From Rhizobiaceae bacterium (GTDB lineage Bacteria > Pseudomonadota > Alphaproteobacteria > Rhizobiales > Rhizobiaceae): 64,000 nt of DNA. Location of the stretch: the NCBI GenBank assembly GCA_014238155.1, contig JABABQ010000050.1:62001-126000 (forward strand). The letters run 5' to 3'. Shown piece after piece: positions 13,426 through 40,484 of the stretch (its first letter is position 1; every line of letters begins with the position of its first letter). The translations under genes were made by a program, and so were the position numbers. Below the pieces are notes generated by a model. The model worked only from the letters and a program-made list of their open reading frames with translations. It did no database searches and was not told where the DNA came from.

Positions 13426-13453
13426 AACCGTTCGACAGTTGGTGCAGCACCGC

Positions 13454-13525
13454 GCGCCTCGCCGAATGCCTCGCTGCGCGCCTCTACGCGTTCCTCGCCG
13501 CTGTCCTCGCCGCGTTCCTCGCCGC
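13454..13525. repeat. 12-bp tandem repeat (three clean units plus degenerate ones)
   Basis: Between the convergent ptsN and TolC-like genes, the unit GTTCCTCGCCGC occurs at 13490-13501 and 13514-13525 with the near copy TGTCCTCGCCGC at 13502-13513. More decayed copies extend back to about 13454. The array is strongly G+C-rich and lies in the 102-bp intergenic gap, ending two bases before the stop of the TolC-like gene. Confidence 0.8.
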
Positions 13526-13527
13526 CG

Positions 13528-14913
13528 CTATTGACGAAATGTCAGTTTGGTATCCAGCCGGGTTGTATCGGAAAGTGTCGCATTCAGCGCCGCCAGTTCT
13601 GCCGTTAAGCGAACCACTTCAATACGACCTTTCAAATGTGCCGAAATCCTGTCGGGCCGGGCGCTCCCGGCCCCATCCGCGGCACTCTGTCGCGCGGCCG
13701 ACAAGGCGGAGCGAACCTTCGACCGCTGCAGTTGCAAACTCCCGACAACAATCTTGTTGATGCGGGCTGCCTCCAGCGAACGCCACAAAACCCCATTGTT
13801 GACTTCGTAGAGTGATGCCGCCCGCGCATCGCTGGCAATATCCTCAAGTTCAAACCGCTGGGGAGAATAGGCCCCCAATCGTACTGAGACCGCAATTTTC
13901 GCAGTCATTTCACCATCGTCGCTGATGGTAATATCGTCGCTGCCATCACCACGTTGAGCATAGCCAACACTGGCTTTGAATTTTAACGCATCGGCGCTGC
14001 GCATTTGGGATTCCAGTTGTTGAATGCGGGTTTCGGTTTCTTCCAAACGCCTGTCCAGATCGAAATAGGACTTGCCCTGTATCCGCCGAACGATCTGCCG
14101 TTTGTTAGCCTCCCCTTCGGCGCTTGCGGCTTCTGCCTCCAATTGCCGGATGGACTGCCGCAGCACGTTGGCGCGAAACACCGTCAGTTCACCATTATTC
14201 AATCCCGATGATATCGCCTGTTTGATCGAGGCAATTTCACCCCGGGCACGTTTCAGATAACCGGCTTTTGCCTGAAATCCGGCCTGATTGAGGGATTGAT
14301 TGGAAGTTACCAGCAATTGCGCCAATTTCGCTGCTGCATCGTTGCGCGCGCATTGCACCATCGCCAGTTGTTCCTTCAGATTAGCCCGGCGCAAATCAAG
14401 AAGATCATAGCTGGCGCCGATATTGATGTCCTGGTCGGAATTAACGCTGCCATTGATTGTTGGTGACCGAAGCAGAGTGGACTCAATGCCTGCATGGGCA
14501 AGAATCCGACGACAGGACGGAGAAATCGTATTCGATATGCGTTCAATTCTGGACTTACCCTGCCCCAGAACTGCATCCGACTTGCCTGTTGAACCGGTGA
14601 CAATGTCATCCTGACGAAGTTGAGAATACTTGTTATCAGGATTTGTCTTGTTTCTGATGGTAGGTGCGTATGCAGCCGTCGCCCTCACATTTGATGTCAG
14701 TGCAGGCTGTGCGTGGGTGTCGGGCGCTTTCGCGGTCGATCCGACTGCCACCTGCTGATGGTTTGGTGTGGCAGAAGTCAACGCAGCCAGAGGGTTCGCA
14801 AATTTGTGGGCCGTACAGCCGCTGCCAATCCCGGCGCATGCCAGCAACAGGCAAATTCGCAAGCCAATTGACATCCCAGAACCAGATCGTCCCTTTTCAA
14901 TATCATTCAACAT
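13528..14913 (-). CDS. TolC-like outer-membrane lipoprotein of the exopolysaccharide locus
   Basis: About 461 residues. The N-terminus has a hydrophobic signal (IGLRICLLLACAGIGSGC) ending in a lipobox-like Cys, then a low-complexity linker to about residue 130. The rest is long helical, Ala/Gln/Arg/Glu-rich sequence with coiled-coil character (for example RRLEETETRIQQLESQMRSA) broken by short beta-like stretches (LKFKASVGYAQ, MTAKIAVSVRLGAYSP), the pattern of TolC/OEP proteins. It is the last gene of a three-gene unit after the HlyD-like protein, as expected for the outer-membrane exit of a secretion complex. ATG 14913 is used (AGGG upstream); a later ATG at 14874 is possible. Function is inferred from pattern and context. 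Confidence 0.65.
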   Translation of the reverse strand: MLNDIEKGRSGSGMSIGLRICLLLACAGIGSGCTAHKFANPLAALTSATPNHQQVAVGSTAKAPDTHAQPALTSNVRATAAYAPTIRNKTNPDNKYSQLRQDDIVTGSTGKSDAVLGQGKSRIERISNTISPSCRRILAHAGIESTLLRSPTINGSVNSDQDINIGASYDLLDLRRANLKEQLAMVQCARNDAAAKLAQLLVTSNQSLNQAGFQAKAGYLKRARGEIASIKQAISSGLNNGELTVFRANVLRQSIRQLEAEAASAEGEANKRQIVRRIQGKSYFDLDRRLEETETRIQQLESQMRSADALKFKASVGYAQRGDGSDDITISDDGEMTAKIAVSVRLGAYSPQRFELEDIASDARAASLYEVNNGVLWRSLEAARINKIVVGSLQLQRSKVRSALSAARQSAADGAGSARPDRISAHLKGRIEVVRLTAELAALNATLSDTTRLDTKLTFRQ

Positions 14914-14950
14914 ATCGCCCTGCACCCACACTCACTCAAACTCAAAAAAA

Positions 14951-16705
14951 TCAAAACCATAATGGGGCCGAACCAGAATGCACGATTTCCACTTTACCAG
15001 ACTTGGCGTCCTCAAATTTGGCTTCGACAAAACTCCCGCGCATGGGTTTAGAGAACAGCGGATGCACCGACGCGGTTTCCCCGTCGATCGCCTTTCCAAC
15101 CGTTCCAACCCTGGAGCAGAAAAATATGTTCAATGCACACCCATAAAGCGGATCACCTGCCTGAACGCTATCTGCGTTGTCGTATGGCACGAACAACACG
15201 GTTACGGGTGCGATCATGGCCCTTGCAGCCGGAGTTTTTTCCAATGAATGCAGGTTTTTGGAAATGACCTCAAAGGAATGTTCCAACTGAGCACTTCTCA
15301 ATCCGGCGGACGCCAGGGCAGTGCGAGCGGCCGCTGTTTGCGCTTTTGTCTCAATGATTTGGCGGGCAAGATTGGCAAATTCAGCATTTGTCGGCAAAAC
15401 GTGTTTCAATTCCGGCCGGTCAATTTCAAGTTGCAGTGCATTGAGAAATTTCAAGCTGGTTTCGTGGCCCTGCACGGCCAGTTTCTTACTGGCGATTTCC
15501 CCGTCAACGACAACCAGGCGATGCATCGTTTCAAGAATCGACAATGTAGACTTGTTCAGCTCATCCTTGGTAATCAACCGTTTGGCATAGGCCCTCTTCA
15601 GGTCTCTTGAAAAGTTCTTCTTTCCCGAAAACTTGTCGAAATCATCAACGATCTTGTTCAATCGTGCTATCTGGTTGAGCAGTTCATCGCGTTGGCCCGT
15701 TTCCGCCTTGATCTCCTGCGCTAGCGTACGCCGGGTCAGCAACAGCCGCAGCTCGCCGTCGCGCTCAGCCCGCCTGGCAATTTCCAATTCGGCGGTTACA
15801 GAAGTCAGATCCTGATGCAAATCATTGCGCCGCAGATTCAGCGAGGACAAATCCCTCTCGACTTTTTCCACCAGCACATGGCCACGCGACAATTCAAATG
15901 GCATCGACCAGTTGTCATTGGACAGGAAGAAAATGATCATTGCCCCATAAGCCACAAAGGTCAGGAACAGAGCGGAAAGCAATACGATCGCCAGCTTCTT
16001 GTAAATAAAACTGATCAGCGGAACAAATCTTCGCCAAATTCCCTTATCTATCGCATTCAACTTCGACAGACCGGGTGCGAGTTCGTTTTTCAACTGATCG
16101 TAATTTTCAGAAACCGACCACCAGTCAGACTTATCATCGCCTATGGTCGTCGGTTGAATGTCATGTGGTTGCGGTTGCGCCGCATCGTCGAGGTCGGATA
16201 GAGACGGTGCCAGTGGTGGAGAAGAATCATGCCCTGATTGATCGTCAGGACCCGTGTCTTTGGTGTCGGACTGGTTTTGCCCTGGCACCTCGGGCTGCGG
16301 AGCTGCAGCGACGATTGTCTTGACGATATCGATCGGCTGAACGGGCGCTACAAGTACTGTAGCAATCCCCCACACATCTTCGAAAACACCGGCATTTTGC
16401 TCATTTGCCAGAACTACAAGAGTGCCAAAGCTACCCAGCTTTGCCAGCCGCAGCACGTCTTCAGGGTCTCCCGCCTCCTGTTTGCGCAAATCAACCATCA
16501 CACAGTCAAATGGTCGCACCTTTGCTTGCGAAACAATGGCGTCACGAGCTGAATCTATCTGCGCTACATGCTCGCTACGAACCGCTTCCACTTTGCGTTG
16601 AAACAATTGATTTGCGGTTTGCAGATCAGCACCAACAAACAATGTGTGCACCGGAGTCTCAATGGCACGGAAGAAGGCCAGATTATCTCTTTTGACAGCA
16701 CTCAT
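14951..16705 (-). CDS. Inner-membrane HlyD-like periplasmic adaptor with N-terminal pseudo-receiver domain
   Basis: 584 residues in four parts. Residues 19-135 alternate strands and helices like a response-regulator receiver; the Asp after strand 3 is kept (VMVDLR, Asp72), but the acidic pair after strand 1 is reduced to GAD (Asp27) and the usual Lys after strand 5 is Gln123, so phosphorylation is doubtful. A Pro/Asp/Gln-rich linker (about 138-200) leads to one membrane helix (about 238-261). Then come a long coiled coil (about 275-500) and a short beta-rich end with RGSFVEAKF, typical of HlyD/EmrA adaptors. The start is one base after the synthase stop (TGATATG), so translation is coupled. 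By analogy with Alg44 it may link a cytoplasmic signal to polymer synthesis; that is inference. Confidence 0.7.
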   Translation of the reverse strand: MSAVKRDNLAFFRAIETPVHTLFVGADLQTANQLFQRKVEAVRSEHVAQIDSARDAIVSQAKVRPFDCVMVDLRKQEAGDPEDVLRLAKLGSFGTLVVLANEQNAGVFEDVWGIATVLVAPVQPIDIVKTIVAAAPQPEVPGQNQSDTKDTGPDDQSGHDSSPPLAPSLSDLDDAAQPQPHDIQPTTIGDDKSDWWSVSENYDQLKNELAPGLSKLNAIDKGIWRRFVPLISFIYKKLAIVLLSALFLTFVAYGAMIIFFLSNDNWSMPFELSRGHVLVEKVERDLSSLNLRRNDLHQDLTSVTAELEIARRAERDGELRLLLTRRTLAQEIKAETGQRDELLNQIARLNKIVDDFDKFSGKKNFSRDLKRAYAKRLITKDELNKSTLSILETMHRLVVVDGEIASKKLAVQGHETSLKFLNALQLEIDRPELKHVLPTNAEFANLARQIIETKAQTAAARTALASAGLRSAQLEHSFEVISKNLHSLEKTPAARAMIAPVTVLFVPYDNADSVQAGDPLYGCALNIFFCSRVGTVGKAIDGETASVHPLFSKPMRGSFVEAKFEDAKSGKVEIVHSGSAPLWF

Positions 16706-16706
16706 A

Positions 16707-17978
16707 TCAGCCCCTCACCTGTTGGACCGGTTGGGCCGGTTGGGCTTGCGGTGCAGTCAGCACGTCGGCACCGTATTTGGAAGGTTTGCTACCGCCGCGG
16801 GTTTCCCACACGGTTGTACCCAGAGTGAAGAGACCGAGCGGGGTCATGGTCAGATAGACGACGGGAAATACCGCCGCCATGGCGATGAACCACAGACCCG
16901 AAGTTTGGGCGAATTCCGGCAGACTGTGCTTGCTGAATTCGTAGCAAACCGCAAAACAGGTCACCAAAGCTGCATGCCAAATCATTGGCAAAACAAACTG
17001 CAATTCCATTGACTTAGCCAACAGAAACACAGGGTAAAAGAACAGCAATGCCCCCATTGAGACGTAATGGATCAACACAAACAAGTTGAATTTGTACAGA
17101 TGAGGTACCGCCGTGATCAGATCGATCATGTTTGATCTGCGCCAGCGCAATTGCTGATTAAGATATGTGGCCATTGTTTTTGGCGCTTTGGTGAAACAGC
17201 GGGCCGAAAAACACAGCCGGGTTTTATATCCATGCTCGACAAGTTTTCGGGTCAAAAAGCGATCTTCGCCATACTTGACCTGATCTCCCAGAAAACTGCG
17301 GTTTTCCAGATGCGGGTCAACCGCCAGCAAAACATCCCGCTTATAGAGAGTCAGACATCCCGACAGGCACATGACATGGCTATAGGCATTTTCGACATTT
17401 TTCAAAAACTGATAACCGATCCAGTATTTTACTGCCTGCATTCGGGTCAGCCAGGTGTCCTTGGCATTGGATACAAAAACGCAGCCGCCCACAGCATCAG
17501 CACCGGTTGAATACATGTGGCGGGTCAGTTCACGCACGACGTTGGGTTCAACGATCACATCACTGTCGACCGACATTACCAAATCAACGTCCAGCTGTTG
17601 CACCGCATTCTTGATCCCCAGCCGCTTGCCCATATTGGCGGCGTTCTGGGTCAGATCCATCCAGGGGTATCGCGCACAGGCCTGTTGGAGATACTCATAA
17701 GTGTCATCGGTGGAAACGTCATCGATGAACAGGATTTTCAGCTTGTCGCGAGGATAATCCAGTTGCGCAAAAGACTCAGCGGTCTGTAATACGCTGTCCC
17801 CTTCACAATAGACCGGCACCACAATGCCCACGAGAGGCCATTCCGGCGGATCGCCATTGTAAGACTTTAGAGTGCGGCGGTCAGCCAGGCGCAGGATAGA
17901 CCCATAGACATATCTGTTCGTGAAAACGATCAGAATCAAAAGGCCAAAAAGCCATTCTATGGTAGCGATTGCCAACAT
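16707..17978 (-). CDS. Processive GT2 polysaccharide synthase
   Basis: Membrane glycosyltransferase family 2 enzyme (423 residues) of the hyaluronan/NodC/cellulose synthase type, making and exporting a beta-linked polymer from UDP-sugars. The GT-A motifs are in order: IDDVSTDD (Asp86/87), DSD (138-140), GED (237-239) and QxxRW (275-279). One N-terminal helix and about four C-terminal helices flank the catalytic domain; the C-terminus ends in a Gln/Pro/Ala-rich tail. The open frame reaches a TTG at 18026, but the ATG at 17978 has AGGG six to seven bases upstream. It is the first gene of the operon, divergent from a UDP-sugar dehydrogenase. The sugar it polymerises cannot be read from sequence. 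Confidence 0.85.
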   Translation of the reverse strand: MLAIATIEWLFGLLILIVFTNRYVYGSILRLADRRTLKSYNGDPPEWPLVGIVVPVYCEGDSVLQTAESFAQLDYPRDKLKILFIDDVSTDDTYEYLQQACARYPWMDLTQNAANMGKRLGIKNAVQQLDVDLVMSVDSDVIVEPNVVRELTRHMYSTGADAVGGCVFVSNAKDTWLTRMQAVKYWIGYQFLKNVENAYSHVMCLSGCLTLYKRDVLLAVDPHLENRSFLGDQVKYGEDRFLTRKLVEHGYKTRLCFSARCFTKAPKTMATYLNQQLRWRRSNMIDLITAVPHLYKFNLFVLIHYVSMGALLFFYPVFLLAKSMELQFVLPMIWHAALVTCFAVCYEFSKHSLPEFAQTSGLWFIAMAAVFPVVYLTMTPLGLFTLGTTVWETRGGSKPSKYGADVLTAPQAQPAQPVQQVRG

Positions 17979-18296
17979 GATGCGCCCTACACGGCTGAAC
18001 CGTGCCCTGGTGATGCATCTGAACAACCCCTGCGTTGATCAGACATCGCTGGCAATAAGAATGGTTAGCAATGTGAGGTTCGTTAACGCGGGTGGTTAAT
18101 TACAATCTCAGCCACTGATTTAAGTCAAAATTAACGCTGTTTCAGCGACCATAGCTAACAATTGCTGAATCAATCAGCGGTTTTTATCAAACGATATCAT
18201 TGGTTAACCACAAACCCATTCACTGTCGTTTGATTACCTTTCGTCAAGTTGTTGCACTTCATGCTTGCGGCGTGAGTTAGGGGGCACTAGGGCGCT
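17979..18296. promoter_or_regulatory. Divergent promoter region of the exopolysaccharide locus
   Basis: This 318-bp A+T-rich gap separates the synthase operon (minus) from the UDP-sugar dehydrogenase (plus). It holds a consensus CtrA box (listed separately), further TTAAC half-sites near 18083 and 18094, and the perfect 10-bp palindrome TGGTTAACCA at 18201-18210. No reading frame in it looks real. Core promoters were not resolved with confidence. Confidence 0.6.
18120..18135. promoter_or_regulatory. Consensus CtrA box
   Basis: TTAA (18120-18123), seven bases, then TTAAC (18131-18135) match the TTAA-N7-TTAAC consensus of the alphaproteobacterial cell-cycle regulator CtrA exactly. It lies about 140 bp upstream of the synthase start and about 160 bp upstream of the dehydrogenase start. 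The match is seen in the sequence; regulation by CtrA is inferred. Confidence 0.65.
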
Positions 18297-19697
18297 ATGA
18301 GAATGACGACAAAATTGACTGCGTCAGAGCTTGACGCAAACACTGTTGTGCGGCCAACCTCCCGCACGCAGCTGCGGCTTTTGAAATCTCAACCTGTGGA
18401 ATTTCCCGACGCAGCAACCGCCAACGTGGCGATTGTTGGTCTTGGCTATGTCGGATTGCCACTGGTCTGCGGCTTTGCCGCGGCTAGTCGCTCGATTGGC
18501 CTGGATATTGACGGTGTCAAAATCCAGGAACTGAAGGCCAACATCGACCGCACCGGCGAAGTCAAAAGTGCCGATCTGGCTTACGCCGACGCCGAATTCA
18601 CGACCGATCCGGCAATGCTTGCAGAAGCTGATGTGGTGTTGGTCTGTGTACCAACGCCCGTCGATAGTCGAAACAGACCAGACTACGGACCGCTTTTGTC
18701 GGCGTCAAAATCTGTTGCCGAACACATGAAATACGGCGCCGTTATCGTTTATGAATCCACCGTTGACCCGGGCACCACAGAAGAAAAATGTCTCCCGATA
18801 TTGGAAGATATTTCCGGTTTCAAGGAAGGTGTCGACTTTTATCTGGGGTATTCACCAGAACGCATCAATCCAGGTGATCCGACAAGAAGATTGAGTGATA
18901 TCAAAAAGATAGTTGCAGGAACAACTCCTGTTGTCAGCCAGTTTTTGGCTGAACTATACGAACGAGTCGTAAATGCAGGCCTGTTTCAGGCTGCCAGTAT
19001 CAAGGTCGCTGAAGCGGCGAAAATTCTCGAAAACACCCAGCGCGACGTCAATATCGCACTGATGAACGAATTGATGGCGCTCTACGATAAAATGGGGATC
19101 CGCGCGAGCGACGTCATCGCCGCTGCCAGTTCGAAATGGAATTTCCACAGTTACAGACCTGGCATGGTCGGGGGCCACTGTATCGCTGTTGATCCATATT
19201 ACCTGGTCGACGCGGGTCGCCGTCACGGATTGACCATGGAGCTTGTTGCAGCTGGCCGTTCGGTCAACGAACAGACACCTTATTTTCTGGCCGAAAAACT
19301 GGAAGAATTGCTTGGCCAGAACGGCCAGAATATTGCCGGTAAACGTATCCTGGTACTGGGTCGCAGCTTCAAGGAAGATTGCCCCGACACCCGCAATTCC
19401 AAGACTTTCAAACTGATGGATTATTTGTGGGCGCAAGGTGCAGAAGTATTCAATTTTGATCCCGTGGCTGACGACGATCATTTTGCTGGAGGACGTGGCT
19501 CGCAGATCATCGACGATATTCTAAACGGCGAAATCTATGACGCCATCATCGTCACTTTGTGCCATTCGGTGTTTCGCCTGCATCTGGATCCGGAAACTCT
19601 GGCCAGTCTGGCACATCGACAAGCGCCGCTTATCGATATGCGGGGCCTGTATGATCAAGTGGATATGCACGACCATTTTACCTATTGGCGCCCATAA
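18297..19697 (+). CDS. UDP-sugar 6-dehydrogenase of the UDP-N-acetylhexosamine type
   Basis: Nucleotide-sugar dehydrogenase (466 residues) that oxidises C6 of a UDP-sugar with NAD+ to the uronic acid. The Rossmann motif VAIVGLGYVGLPLV is at 44-57, the catalytic-region Lys at about 242 (AEAAKILENTQRDVN) and the thiohemiacetal Cys at 295 in VGGHCIAVDPYYL. The VGGHCI form and the TQRDVNIAL segment are those of the WbpA/TviB/WbpO branch, which acts on UDP-GlcNAc or UDP-GalNAc, rather than of UDP-glucose dehydrogenase. About 40 residues precede the Rossmann fold. Being divergent from a GT2 synthase, it probably supplies an aminouronic precursor for the polymer. The exact substrate is inference. 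Confidence 0.85.
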   Translation: MRMTTKLTASELDANTVVRPTSRTQLRLLKSQPVEFPDAATANVAIVGLGYVGLPLVCGFAAASRSIGLDIDGVKIQELKANIDRTGEVKSADLAYADAEFTTDPAMLAEADVVLVCVPTPVDSRNRPDYGPLLSASKSVAEHMKYGAVIVYESTVDPGTTEEKCLPILEDISGFKEGVDFYLGYSPERINPGDPTRRLSDIKKIVAGTTPVVSQFLAELYERVVNAGLFQAASIKVAEAAKILENTQRDVNIALMNELMALYDKMGIRASDVIAAASSKWNFHSYRPGMVGGHCIAVDPYYLVDAGRRHGLTMELVAAGRSVNEQTPYFLAEKLEELLGQNGQNIAGKRILVLGRSFKEDCPDTRNSKTFKLMDYLWAQGAEVFNFDPVADDDHFAGGRGSQIIDDILNGEIYDAIIVTLCHSVFRLHLDPETLASLAHRQAPLIDMRGLYDQVDMHDHFTYWRP

Positions 19698-19739
19698 GTC
19701 GCATTTACTGTACCAAACGGTACCCCTCAGGAAAATTCC

Positions 19740-40132: not shown

Positions 40133-40204
40133 TTATACCCCGATCCCGCAAATACGTCTTGCGGTACTTTCATTACACCCGACACAACAGAAACTGCAGC
40201 TCTT

Positions 40205-40250
40205 GAGTTCTTCTTACAGGCGCATCAAATGCGCCCCCCCTGTAGAACTC
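40205..40250 (-). ncRNA. Extended hairpin in the lpxC 5' leader
   Basis: Three paired blocks: GAGTTCT/AGAACTC outside (40205-40211 with 40244-40250), ACA/TGT (40216-40218 with 40241-40243), and GGCGCAT/ATGCGCC inside (40219-40225 with 40229-40235) around a 3-base loop. Two unpaired stretches (four and five bases) lie on opposite sides. It ends about 73 bp before the lpxC start codon and has no U-run, so it looks like a leader structure rather than a terminator. Confidence 0.5.
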
Positions 40251-40342
40251 ACAAAACGAGCCTTATTCCCCGATCTTGTTTACTTTCCTACCCTTTGTCG
40301 GCCTGCTATCCAAATCACGCTTTCTTACCGAATGTTAACAAG

Positions 40343-40359
40343 TTAACGGATCGTTAACC
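40343..40359. promoter_or_regulatory. Consensus CtrA box upstream of lpxC
   Basis: TTAA (40343-40346), seven bases, TTAACC (40354-40359): exact match to TTAA-N7-TTAAC. Another GTTAAC lies at 40334-40339. It is 210 bp upstream of the lpxC start and downstream of the ftsZ terminator, so lpxC is the only gene it could control from a promoter position. CtrA regulation is inferred. Confidence 0.65.
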
Positions 40360-40376
40360 GTCTGGCTTCGCTCATC

Positions 40377-40415
40377 AAAAGAGGCCGTTGGGCTTATTAT
40401 GCCCAGCGACCTCTA
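40377..40415 (-). terminator. Intrinsic terminator after ftsZ
   Basis: Read on the minus strand: AGAGGtCGcTGGGC, loop ATAATAA, GCCCAaCGgCCTCT, then TTTT. The stem is twelve pairs with two mismatched positions. It lies about 70 bp beyond the ftsZ stop and closes the dcw transcript before lpxC. Confidence 0.85.
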
Positions 40416-40484
40416 AGAATCGTTAACAGCAGCAATTAAGGTGCACCAAATCGGCACACCGGGCCACCAGCCCAATCAGGCAAT

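What the first reader, a model, noticed from the sequence alone, without database searches (positions are those of the whole stretch)
13528..19697. Compact exopolysaccharide system: GT2 synthase, pseudo-receiver/HlyD adaptor, TolC-like lipoprotein and divergent UDP-aminosugar dehydrogenase
Seen: a coupled minus-strand operon of a processive GT2 enzyme, a one-helix coiled-coil protein with a receiver-like N-terminal domain, and a TolC-like lipoprotein; divergent is a WbpA/TviB-type dehydrogenase. Known: alginate and related systems pair a GT2 synthase with a PilZ-bearing co-polymerase (Alg44) and separate outer-membrane parts. Inferred: this locus is a minimal synthase-dependent system in which a pseudo-receiver replaces PilZ and a TolC-type conduit replaces a porin, making an aminouronic polymer. 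I do not recognise it as a described system.
Basis: partly seen in the sequence, partly recalled or inferred. Interest (0 to 1): 0.72.

Follow-up and report, generated by a model that had tools for sequence, protein, structure and literature searches.

The report
Four-gene sugar-polymer export system
This is a compact four-gene bacterial set that probably makes an acidic amino-sugar polymer and pushes it out of the cell, a build not matched to any named system tested here; its product and the shape of its export parts are still guesses.

Summary
The four-gene set is conserved: the 584-aa gene occurs in 8 of 15 genus genomes, each time beside ptsN; another family of the order carries the set elsewhere; a Paraburkholderia plasmid and four unnamed, probably Burkholderiales, genomes carry a receiver-less version. 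GT2 keeps the processive-synthase motifs and is nearest NodC/hyaluronan synthases; the dehydrogenase is nearest TviB. Fold support is graded: receiver-like domain good (96.5%, partners selected) but without acidic pair and Lys; TolC and HlyD likeness only suggestive (49% and 42%; an HlyD-versus-OEP control reaches 67%). The divergent promoter is rich in CtrA-type TTAAC sites (36 vs 7.7 in shuffles). Best reading: a new variant of synthase-dependent exopolysaccharide secretion, GT2-adaptor-TolC type, with a pseudo-receiver in Alphaproteobacteria only. The product is inferred. Hallmark tests for alginate, mixed-linkage glucan, PNAG, cellulose and NodC were not met; curdlan parts were not compared.

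The parts
18297..19697 (+). Nucleotide-sugar dehydrogenase (DH), TviB-like, divergent from the synthase operon
   Evidence: NCBIfam NF011729 TviB 350.3 bits (cut-off 592), TIGR03026 347.9 bits (cut-off 189.8); 72-79% identity in 5 genus relatives with an invariant GGHC block
17979..18296 (.). Divergent promoter region rich in TTAAC half-sites; TTAA-N7-TTAAC at 18120-18135 (CtrA-type box)
   Evidence: consensus TTAA-N7-TTAA and TTAACCAT as used in PMC11527210 (passages)
16707..17978 (-). Processive GT2 synthase (likely start ATG at 17978; longest ORF runs to 18026), one N-terminal and three C-terminal hydrophobic segments
   Evidence: Pfam PF13641 4.2e-27; DD, DxD, GED, QQxRW kept in 14 of 14 family members compared; nearest PDB chain hyaluronan synthase 1, E 3.7e-27; segments
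14951..16705 (-). Adaptor-like protein: cytoplasmic pseudo-receiver (about residues 12-140), linker, one TM (240-258), periplasmic helical region, conserved C-terminal domain (about 490-584)
   Evidence: invariant Cys523 and Cys530 in 13 of 13
13528..14931 (-). Outer-membrane lipoprotein, candidate TolC/OEP-like duct; Cys39 lipobox; Cys140 and Cys194 invariant in 14 of 14
   Evidence: 91 and 92 superseded

Best explanation
A compact synthase-dependent exopolysaccharide system. The dehydrogenase oxidises a UDP-N-acetylhexosamine (most simply UDP-GlcNAc) to the uronic acid; the membrane GT2 polymerises it, alone or with another UDP-sugar, into a beta-linked acidic amino-sugar polymer while pushing it through the inner membrane; the one-helix protein bridges the periplasm; the polymer leaves through the outer-membrane lipoprotein, probably a TolC-type duct. 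In Alphaproteobacteria the bridge protein carries a cytoplasmic pseudo-receiver that probably senses a partner or ligand rather than phosphate, and the divergent promoter is probably under CtrA-type cell-cycle control. Shown here: gene linkage, motifs, homology across two groups of bacteria, promoter motif enrichment. Inferred: substrate, product, physical complex, duct, direction of secretion, regulation.
For: Neighbourhood conserved in the genus, in another family of the order at a different site and, rearranged, in 5 receiver-less loci. Adaptor homology between the two groups: hhalign 99.5%, E 1.2e-22; outer-membrane proteins 84.4%, E 7e-6. DH overlaps the outer-membrane gene by 4 nt in L045, L058 and L059, so DH belongs to the system. 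GT2 keeps the processive motifs and is nearest NodC/HAS. Lipoprotein vs 33 OEP proteins: 49.1%, E 1.7e-4, score 42.0 over 300 collinear columns; reversed 30.7, 25 column shuffles at most 15.7. Adaptor core vs 11 HlyD proteins: 41.9%, E 2.7e-4, score 38.1; reversed 17.7, shuffles at most 17.3. Receiver: 96.5%, E 7.8e-10 vs 16 REC domains; 0.1-0.2% vs OEP and HlyD sets.
Against: HlyD vs OEP as a control scores 44.6 (66.6%, 81 columns), no worse than the lipoprotein vs OEP. No Pfam family above cut-off for adaptor or lipoprotein. OEP appears in 1 of 14 lipoprotein members, at E 5.3. No internal repeat seen in the lipoprotein. The REC partners were picked because this profile hits them. DH stands without the other three genes at the ptsN locus in G005 and G012, where GT2 and adaptor are not found in the genome either (G005 is 77% complete), so DH can serve another glycan. 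No structure prediction was possible.
Confidence: 0.6

Rival explanations
1. The GT2 makes and extrudes a hyaluronan-like capsule by itself, and the adaptor plus lipoprotein only anchor it or set chain length, with no tunnel to the outside.
For: HAS enzymes polymerise and secrete alone (recalled); GT2 is nearest HAS/NodC; adaptor and lipoprotein diverge faster than GT2 (44-61% and 32-58% vs 76-85%); the TolC-like signal is not above the HlyD-OEP control.
Against: Polymers of Gram-negative cells must cross the outer membrane; the lipoprotein profile aligns with OEP channels over 300 columns, above its decoys.
Confidence: 0.17
2. A non-processive glycosyltransferase and dehydrogenase that modify LPS or another lipid-linked glycan; the adaptor and lipoprotein are a separate envelope function.
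For: DH stands alone at the ptsN locus in 2 of 15 genus genomes; the locus lies close to lptC-lptA-lptB in the genus.
Against: QQxRW and NodC/HAS kinship indicate processivity; no lpt-like gene was noticed by eye around L111 and L020 (no search made); GT2 and adaptor genes overlap in relatives.
Confidence: 0.12
3. Short chitin-like oligosaccharides exported as signals, in the manner of Nod-factor backbones.
For: NodC is the best NCBIfam model for the GT2 (169.5 bits).
Against: Far under the NodC cut-off of 550; no NodB- or NodIJ-like gene was noticed by eye at the loci read (no search made).
Confidence: 0.06

Closest known systems
Cyanobacterial XcsA-XcsB-TolC cellulose model (Maeda et al. 2018, as told in PMC12430437; passages read)
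   Same: GT2 synthase, periplasmic adaptor and (here suggestive) TolC-type exit
   Different: The review says the genes are scattered in T. vulcanus, that synthase and HlyD-like genes adjoin in S. elongatus and Nostoc, that TolC is not in the same operon, and that the model lacks experimental proof; XcsA there carries PilZ. Here all parts plus the precursor enzyme share one locus and no PilZ was found
Alginate Alg8-Alg44 with AlgD (recalled)
   Same: Sugar-nucleotide dehydrogenase + GT2 + one-helix protein with a cytoplasmic regulatory domain and a periplasmic domain
   Different: No PilZ among the Pfam families shown for 13 adaptors; no AlgK/E-like gene noticed at the locus by eye; TviB-type dehydrogenase
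Rhizobial mixed-linkage glucan bgsBA (R. etli, PMC9495663, passages) and curdlan crdASC (named there)
   Same: Two- or three-gene GT2 plus adaptor operons in Rhizobiaceae
   Different: BgsB has no blastp similarity to the adaptor; BgsA and GT2 share 22% identity. CrdA, CrdS and CrdC were not compared
Hyaluronan synthase hasA-hasB and NodC
   Same: Nearest GT2 relatives; HAS is likewise paired with a UDP-sugar dehydrogenase (recalled)
   Different: No outer-membrane parts in hasAB (recalled); NodC cut-off not reached

Membership tests
Alginate-type (Alg44) systems | PilZ domain on the co-polymerase | tested here: not met
   No PilZ in the full Pfam list of the window protein nor among the 25 of 36 families shown for 13 adaptors; receiver-like domain instead
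HlyD/membrane fusion proteins | HlyD-family profile similarity | tested here: inconclusive
   41.9%, E 2.7e-4, score 38.1 over 49 columns vs 11 HlyD proteins; reversed 17.7, shuffles at most 17.3; but HlyD vs OEP control 44.6. An earlier run with 6 proteins, 5 minus-strand ones lost by my error, gave 31.3 against 33.5 reversed
TolC/OEP outer-membrane factors | Pfam OEP match above cut-off | tested here: not met
   1 of 14 members shows OEP at all, E 5.3
TolC/OEP outer-membrane factors | Profile-profile similarity | tested here: inconclusive
   49.1%, E 1.7e-4, score 42.0 over 300 columns vs 33 OEP proteins; reversed 30.7, shuffles at most 15.7, adaptor core 30.6, but HlyD 44.6; internal repeat not detected
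Receiver (REC) domains | Profile similarity to receivers | tested here: met
   96.5%, E 7.8e-10 vs 16 RECs (selected by this profile); 91.3% vs CpaE-type domains; no Pfam REC hit
Receiver (REC) domains | Phosphorylation residues: beta1 acidic pair, beta3 Asp, beta5 Lys (recalled) | tested here: not met
   beta3 Asp in 8 of 8; acidic pair 0 of 8; Lys 0 of 8 (read by eye from alignment)
Processive GT2 synthases | D, DxD, ED, Q(Q/R)xRW motifs (recalled) and C-terminal TM segments | tested here: met
NodC / PgaC / cellulose synthase (CelA) | NCBIfam equivalog cut-off | tested here: not met
   169.5 vs 550, 95.7 vs 422.3, 39.0 vs 699.1
TviB dehydrogenases | NCBIfam equivalog cut-off | tested here: not met
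   350.3 vs 592; still the best of the 13 models listed
Mixed-linkage glucan bgsBA | BgsB homologue | tested here: not met
   Best blastp E 1.8
Curdlan crdASC | CrdA, CrdS, CrdC homologues | not tested
   No Crd sequence was fetched
Hyaluronan-like synthases | Product and alternating transfer | not testable with these tools
   Needs biochemistry

The most novel reading that the evidence does not exclude
Probability: 0.2. Interest if true: 0.75.

Novelty: new variant of a known kind. Interest (0 to 1): 0.5.

Why it matters
Whether a polysaccharide synthase can work with a TolC-type duct is an open point: for the cyanobacterial model the review says that proof is lacking and that TolC is not in the same operon (PMC12430437, passages). 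Here synthase, adaptor, outer-membrane part and precursor enzyme share one small locus, so the idea can be tested by a few deletions. It would also show a receiver-derived domain on a polymer-export adaptor, where PilZ is the usual part (recalled), and possibly tie a polymer to the CtrA cell-cycle circuit.

Tried and rejected
CpaE/TadZ-type domain (named by recall) as the specific origin of the receiver: suggested by the single class hit besides the own genome, but the domain matches CpaE receivers less well (91.3%, E 9.5e-7) than ordinary receivers (96.5%, E 7.8e-10), so it is not favoured; polar placement stays a guess. PDB searches with adaptor and lipoprotein, single and profile: nothing convincing. 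Plasmid search with the lipoprotein: no match. PHROGs with adaptors: best E 0.044, 1 of 13. Phage search with GT2: 12 records, all under 60% identity, 22.6-25% in the 5 listed.

A flaw found on checking: I read OEP and HlyD loci on the plus strand only, though minus-strand matches lie on the minus strand. thus used 5 OEP proteins (one a 96-aa fragment) and gave 3.1% at best; searches kept 16 of 33 and 16 of 37 ids, at least one likely a wrong frame, and gave 67.7% and 65.0% for the lipoprotein, and HlyD below its reversed decoy. One search took each locus on its own strand (33 of 35 OEP ids kept, 1 duplicate and 1 short dropped; all 10 HlyD loci plus BgsB): lipoprotein-OEP fell to 49.1%, adaptor-HlyD rose to 41.9%, and the HlyD-OEP control rose to 66.6%. 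I use. It weakens the duct step and helps the adaptor step; I moved my confidence from 0.62 to 0.6 and the first rival from 0.15 to 0.17.

CtrA spacing control: exact TTAA-N8-TTAA occurs in 5 of 9 loci against 3 of 9 for N7, so N7 is not special; the signal is the half-site count. The shuffles ignore the kinship of the seven genus loci. Literature leads on homopolymers and sheath polymers gave nothing on this system (listings only).
Full report
The observation. The GT2 probably starts at 17978 rather than 18026: in 4 of 6 relatives the longest ORF begins at that Met. GT2 and the 584-aa gene are separated by one base, and overlap by 4 nt in L011, L012, L013, L014 and L015. Rfam finds nothing in the locus at gathering scores.

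Conservation. In the genus, the 584-aa protein is found in 8 of 15 genomes (G000, G001, G007, G008, G009, G010, G011, G013) and GT2 in 7 of 15 (G008's contig ends inside the adaptor gene). In these 8 the lipoprotein gene lies next to ptsN, after hpf and rpoN, and where the contig goes on, DH is divergent from GT2. Identity to the window is 76-85% for GT2 (6 relatives), 72-79% for DH (5), 44-61% for the adaptor (5) and 32-58% for the lipoprotein (7): enzymes conserved, envelope parts fast-changing. Of the other 7 genus genomes, G003 (PtsN 95.7% identical) has other genes at the site; G005 and G012 have DH alone at the ptsN locus; in the stretches read from G002, G004, G006 and G014 none of the four genes appears. 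In one search, 0 of 46 genomes from other genera had the 584-aa protein.

Wider spread. By profile: 385 class genomes gave the own genome and one protein that by eye and recall is CpaE-type; 397 order genomes gave four: the own genome, two genomes of one genus in another family (G1109, G1321) and an orphan with the N-domain but no C-terminal domain (G1309). G1109 has DH divergent from GT2, adaptor and lipoprotein in the same layout with other neighbours, among them an HD-domain protein (Pfam HD_5; GYP-like by eye). G1321's contig ends after the adaptor. In 398 phylum genomes 23 matched; besides the own genome only G643 was a true adaptor, the other 21 being receiver-domain proteins by eye. Around G643, 5 of 250 family genomes matched, the fifth at E 1e-3 over 84 residues, which I take as spurious, leaving 4; in 399 genomes of its order only G643 itself matched. 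Among 72,556 plasmid records the adaptor matched one, Paraburkholderia sp. PGU19; a query from that record also hit a fragment in Caballeronia. So the set is rare and patchy, which suggests transfer or repeated loss.

The receiver-less version. L020 is the named Paraburkholderia record. In these four the order is GT2, adaptor, outer-membrane protein, DH, all on one strand, with DH overlapping the preceding gene by 4 nt in L045, L058 and L059; in L057 the DH start is unclear. In Paraburkholderia the order differs, with a GH16-like gene (22.4 bits, cut-off 22) and an EAL gene alongside. These adaptors start just before the TM helix (starts chosen by me where the open frame runs on upstream) and have no receiver domain. 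Homology to the window's adaptor core is strong (hhalign 99.5%, E 1.2e-22), clearest in the TM segment and a C-terminal domain with two invariant Cys; the outer-membrane proteins are homologous at 84.4%, E 7e-6. The core system therefore is DH, GT2, adaptor, outer-membrane protein; the receiver is an alphaproteobacterial addition in the loci seen.

The enzymes. GT2 keeps the DD, DxD, GED and QQxRW motifs in 14 of 14 family members, scores 169.5 bits with NodC (cut-off 550), 95.7 with PgaC (422.3) and 39.0 with CelA (699.1), and best matches hyaluronan synthases in the PDB. The A3 profile scores the receiver-less group's GT2s at 199-215 bits, one NodC at 158 and BgsA at 41; in the tree 3 of 13 inner branches are well supported. 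The dehydrogenase is nearest TviB, and its best PDB chains are named UDP-ManNAcA dehydrogenase, Cap5O, GalNAcA dehydrogenase and CalS8. That the precursor is a UDP-HexNAcA is inference from family; UDP-GlcNAc as substrate is the simplest guess.

The adaptor. Its first 140 residues match receiver domains: hhalign 96.5%, E 7.8e-10 against 16 receivers, which were however chosen because this profile hits them. The same domain scores 0.1-0.2% with OEP and HlyD sets. The beta3 Asp is kept in 8 of 8 alphaproteobacterial copies, the beta1 acidic pair and beta5 Lys in 0 of 8 (by eye), so phospho-transfer of the usual kind is unlikely. The periplasmic core against 11 HlyD proteins scores 38.1 (41.9%, E 2.7e-4) over 49 columns; its reversed profile scores 17.7 and 25 shuffles at most 17.3. 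This is suggestive only; 'adaptor' rests mainly on topology and gene company.

The lipoprotein. There is a lipobox at Cys39 in the window and its genus relatives; the receiver-less group shows none by eye. Against 33 OEP proteins the 14-member profile scores 42.0 (49.1%, E 1.7e-4) over 300 collinear columns; the reversed profile scores 30.7, 25 column shuffles at most 15.7, the adaptor core 30.6; but HlyD proteins, as a control, score 44.6 (66.6%) over 81 columns. So the score alone does not set it apart from other long-helix envelope proteins; the length and order of the alignment, the lipobox and the gene company speak for a TolC-type part. Earlier, better-looking figures came from a partly misread set and are set aside. 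No internal repeat was detected.

Promoter. The 318-base divergent region holds TTAA-N7-TTAAC at 18120-18135; the pattern has 2 places in 64 kb, the other (40342-40358) in the ftsZ-lpxC gap. Over the 9 loci, TTAAC half-sites number 36 against a mean of 7.7 in 200 shuffles (largest 16). In the window their density is 22.2 per kb against 3.7 in 14 other gaps, of which the ftsZ-lpxC gap has 22.7. N8 spacing is at least as common as N7, and TTAACCAT itself is absent from the window's region. The CtrA consensus is that used for Agrobacterium in PMC11527210 (passages). This is a lead, not proof.

Known systems. Searches of the paper library (listings, with passages read only in PMC12430437, PMC9495663 and PMC11527210) showed no description of this gene set; most subscription papers are not held. 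The nearest idea is the cyanobacterial XcsAB-TolC model. BgsB of the Rhizobium MLG system is not similar by blastp; curdlan proteins were not compared.

Verdict. A real, rare, conserved four-gene set, most likely for polymer export; a new variant of synthase-dependent secretion; product and folds open.

Noticed in passing
window 40133-40484: Gap between ftsZ and lpxC is as rich in TTAAC sites (8 in 352 bases) as the promoter studied here and holds a near-palindromic GTTAACGGATCGTTAAC.
   Followed up: partly
window 13440-13532: C-rich run of CGCCTCGC / CCTCGCCGC-like units between ptsN and the end of the lipoprotein gene; possible repeat or terminator.
   Followed up: no
L112:9329-10519: Orphan 396-aa protein with the same receiver-like N-domain but no C-terminal domain; no GT2, DH or lipoprotein match in the 19 kb read.
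   Followed up: partly
L070:7496-10282: At the same site in the close relative G003 lie several small proteins that by eye look like secreted pilin-type proteins, in place of the polymer genes.
   Followed up: no
L072:6198-7598 and L075:5329-6753: The dehydrogenase alone stands at the ptsN locus in two genus genomes without the other three genes.
   Followed up: partly
L020:14014-14691 and 18420-19739: In Paraburkholderia sp. PGU19 a GH16-like gene and an EAL-domain gene accompany the set, hinting at polymer trimming and c-di-GMP control.
   Followed up: partly
adaptor and outer-membrane alignments A9, A10: Each of the two envelope proteins has an invariant Cys pair (523/530 in 13 of 13; 140/194 in 14 of 14), perhaps disulfides.
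   Followed up: no
G014: A 0.9 Mb genome rated 98% complete sits in the same genus as genomes of 2.4-4.8 Mb, pointing to strong genome reduction.
   Followed up: no
L045 flanks: Plasmids of Comamonas, Variovorax and Burkholderia share DNA with the flanks of one unnamed carrier, none shown to cover the polymer genes in the rows listed.
   Followed up: no
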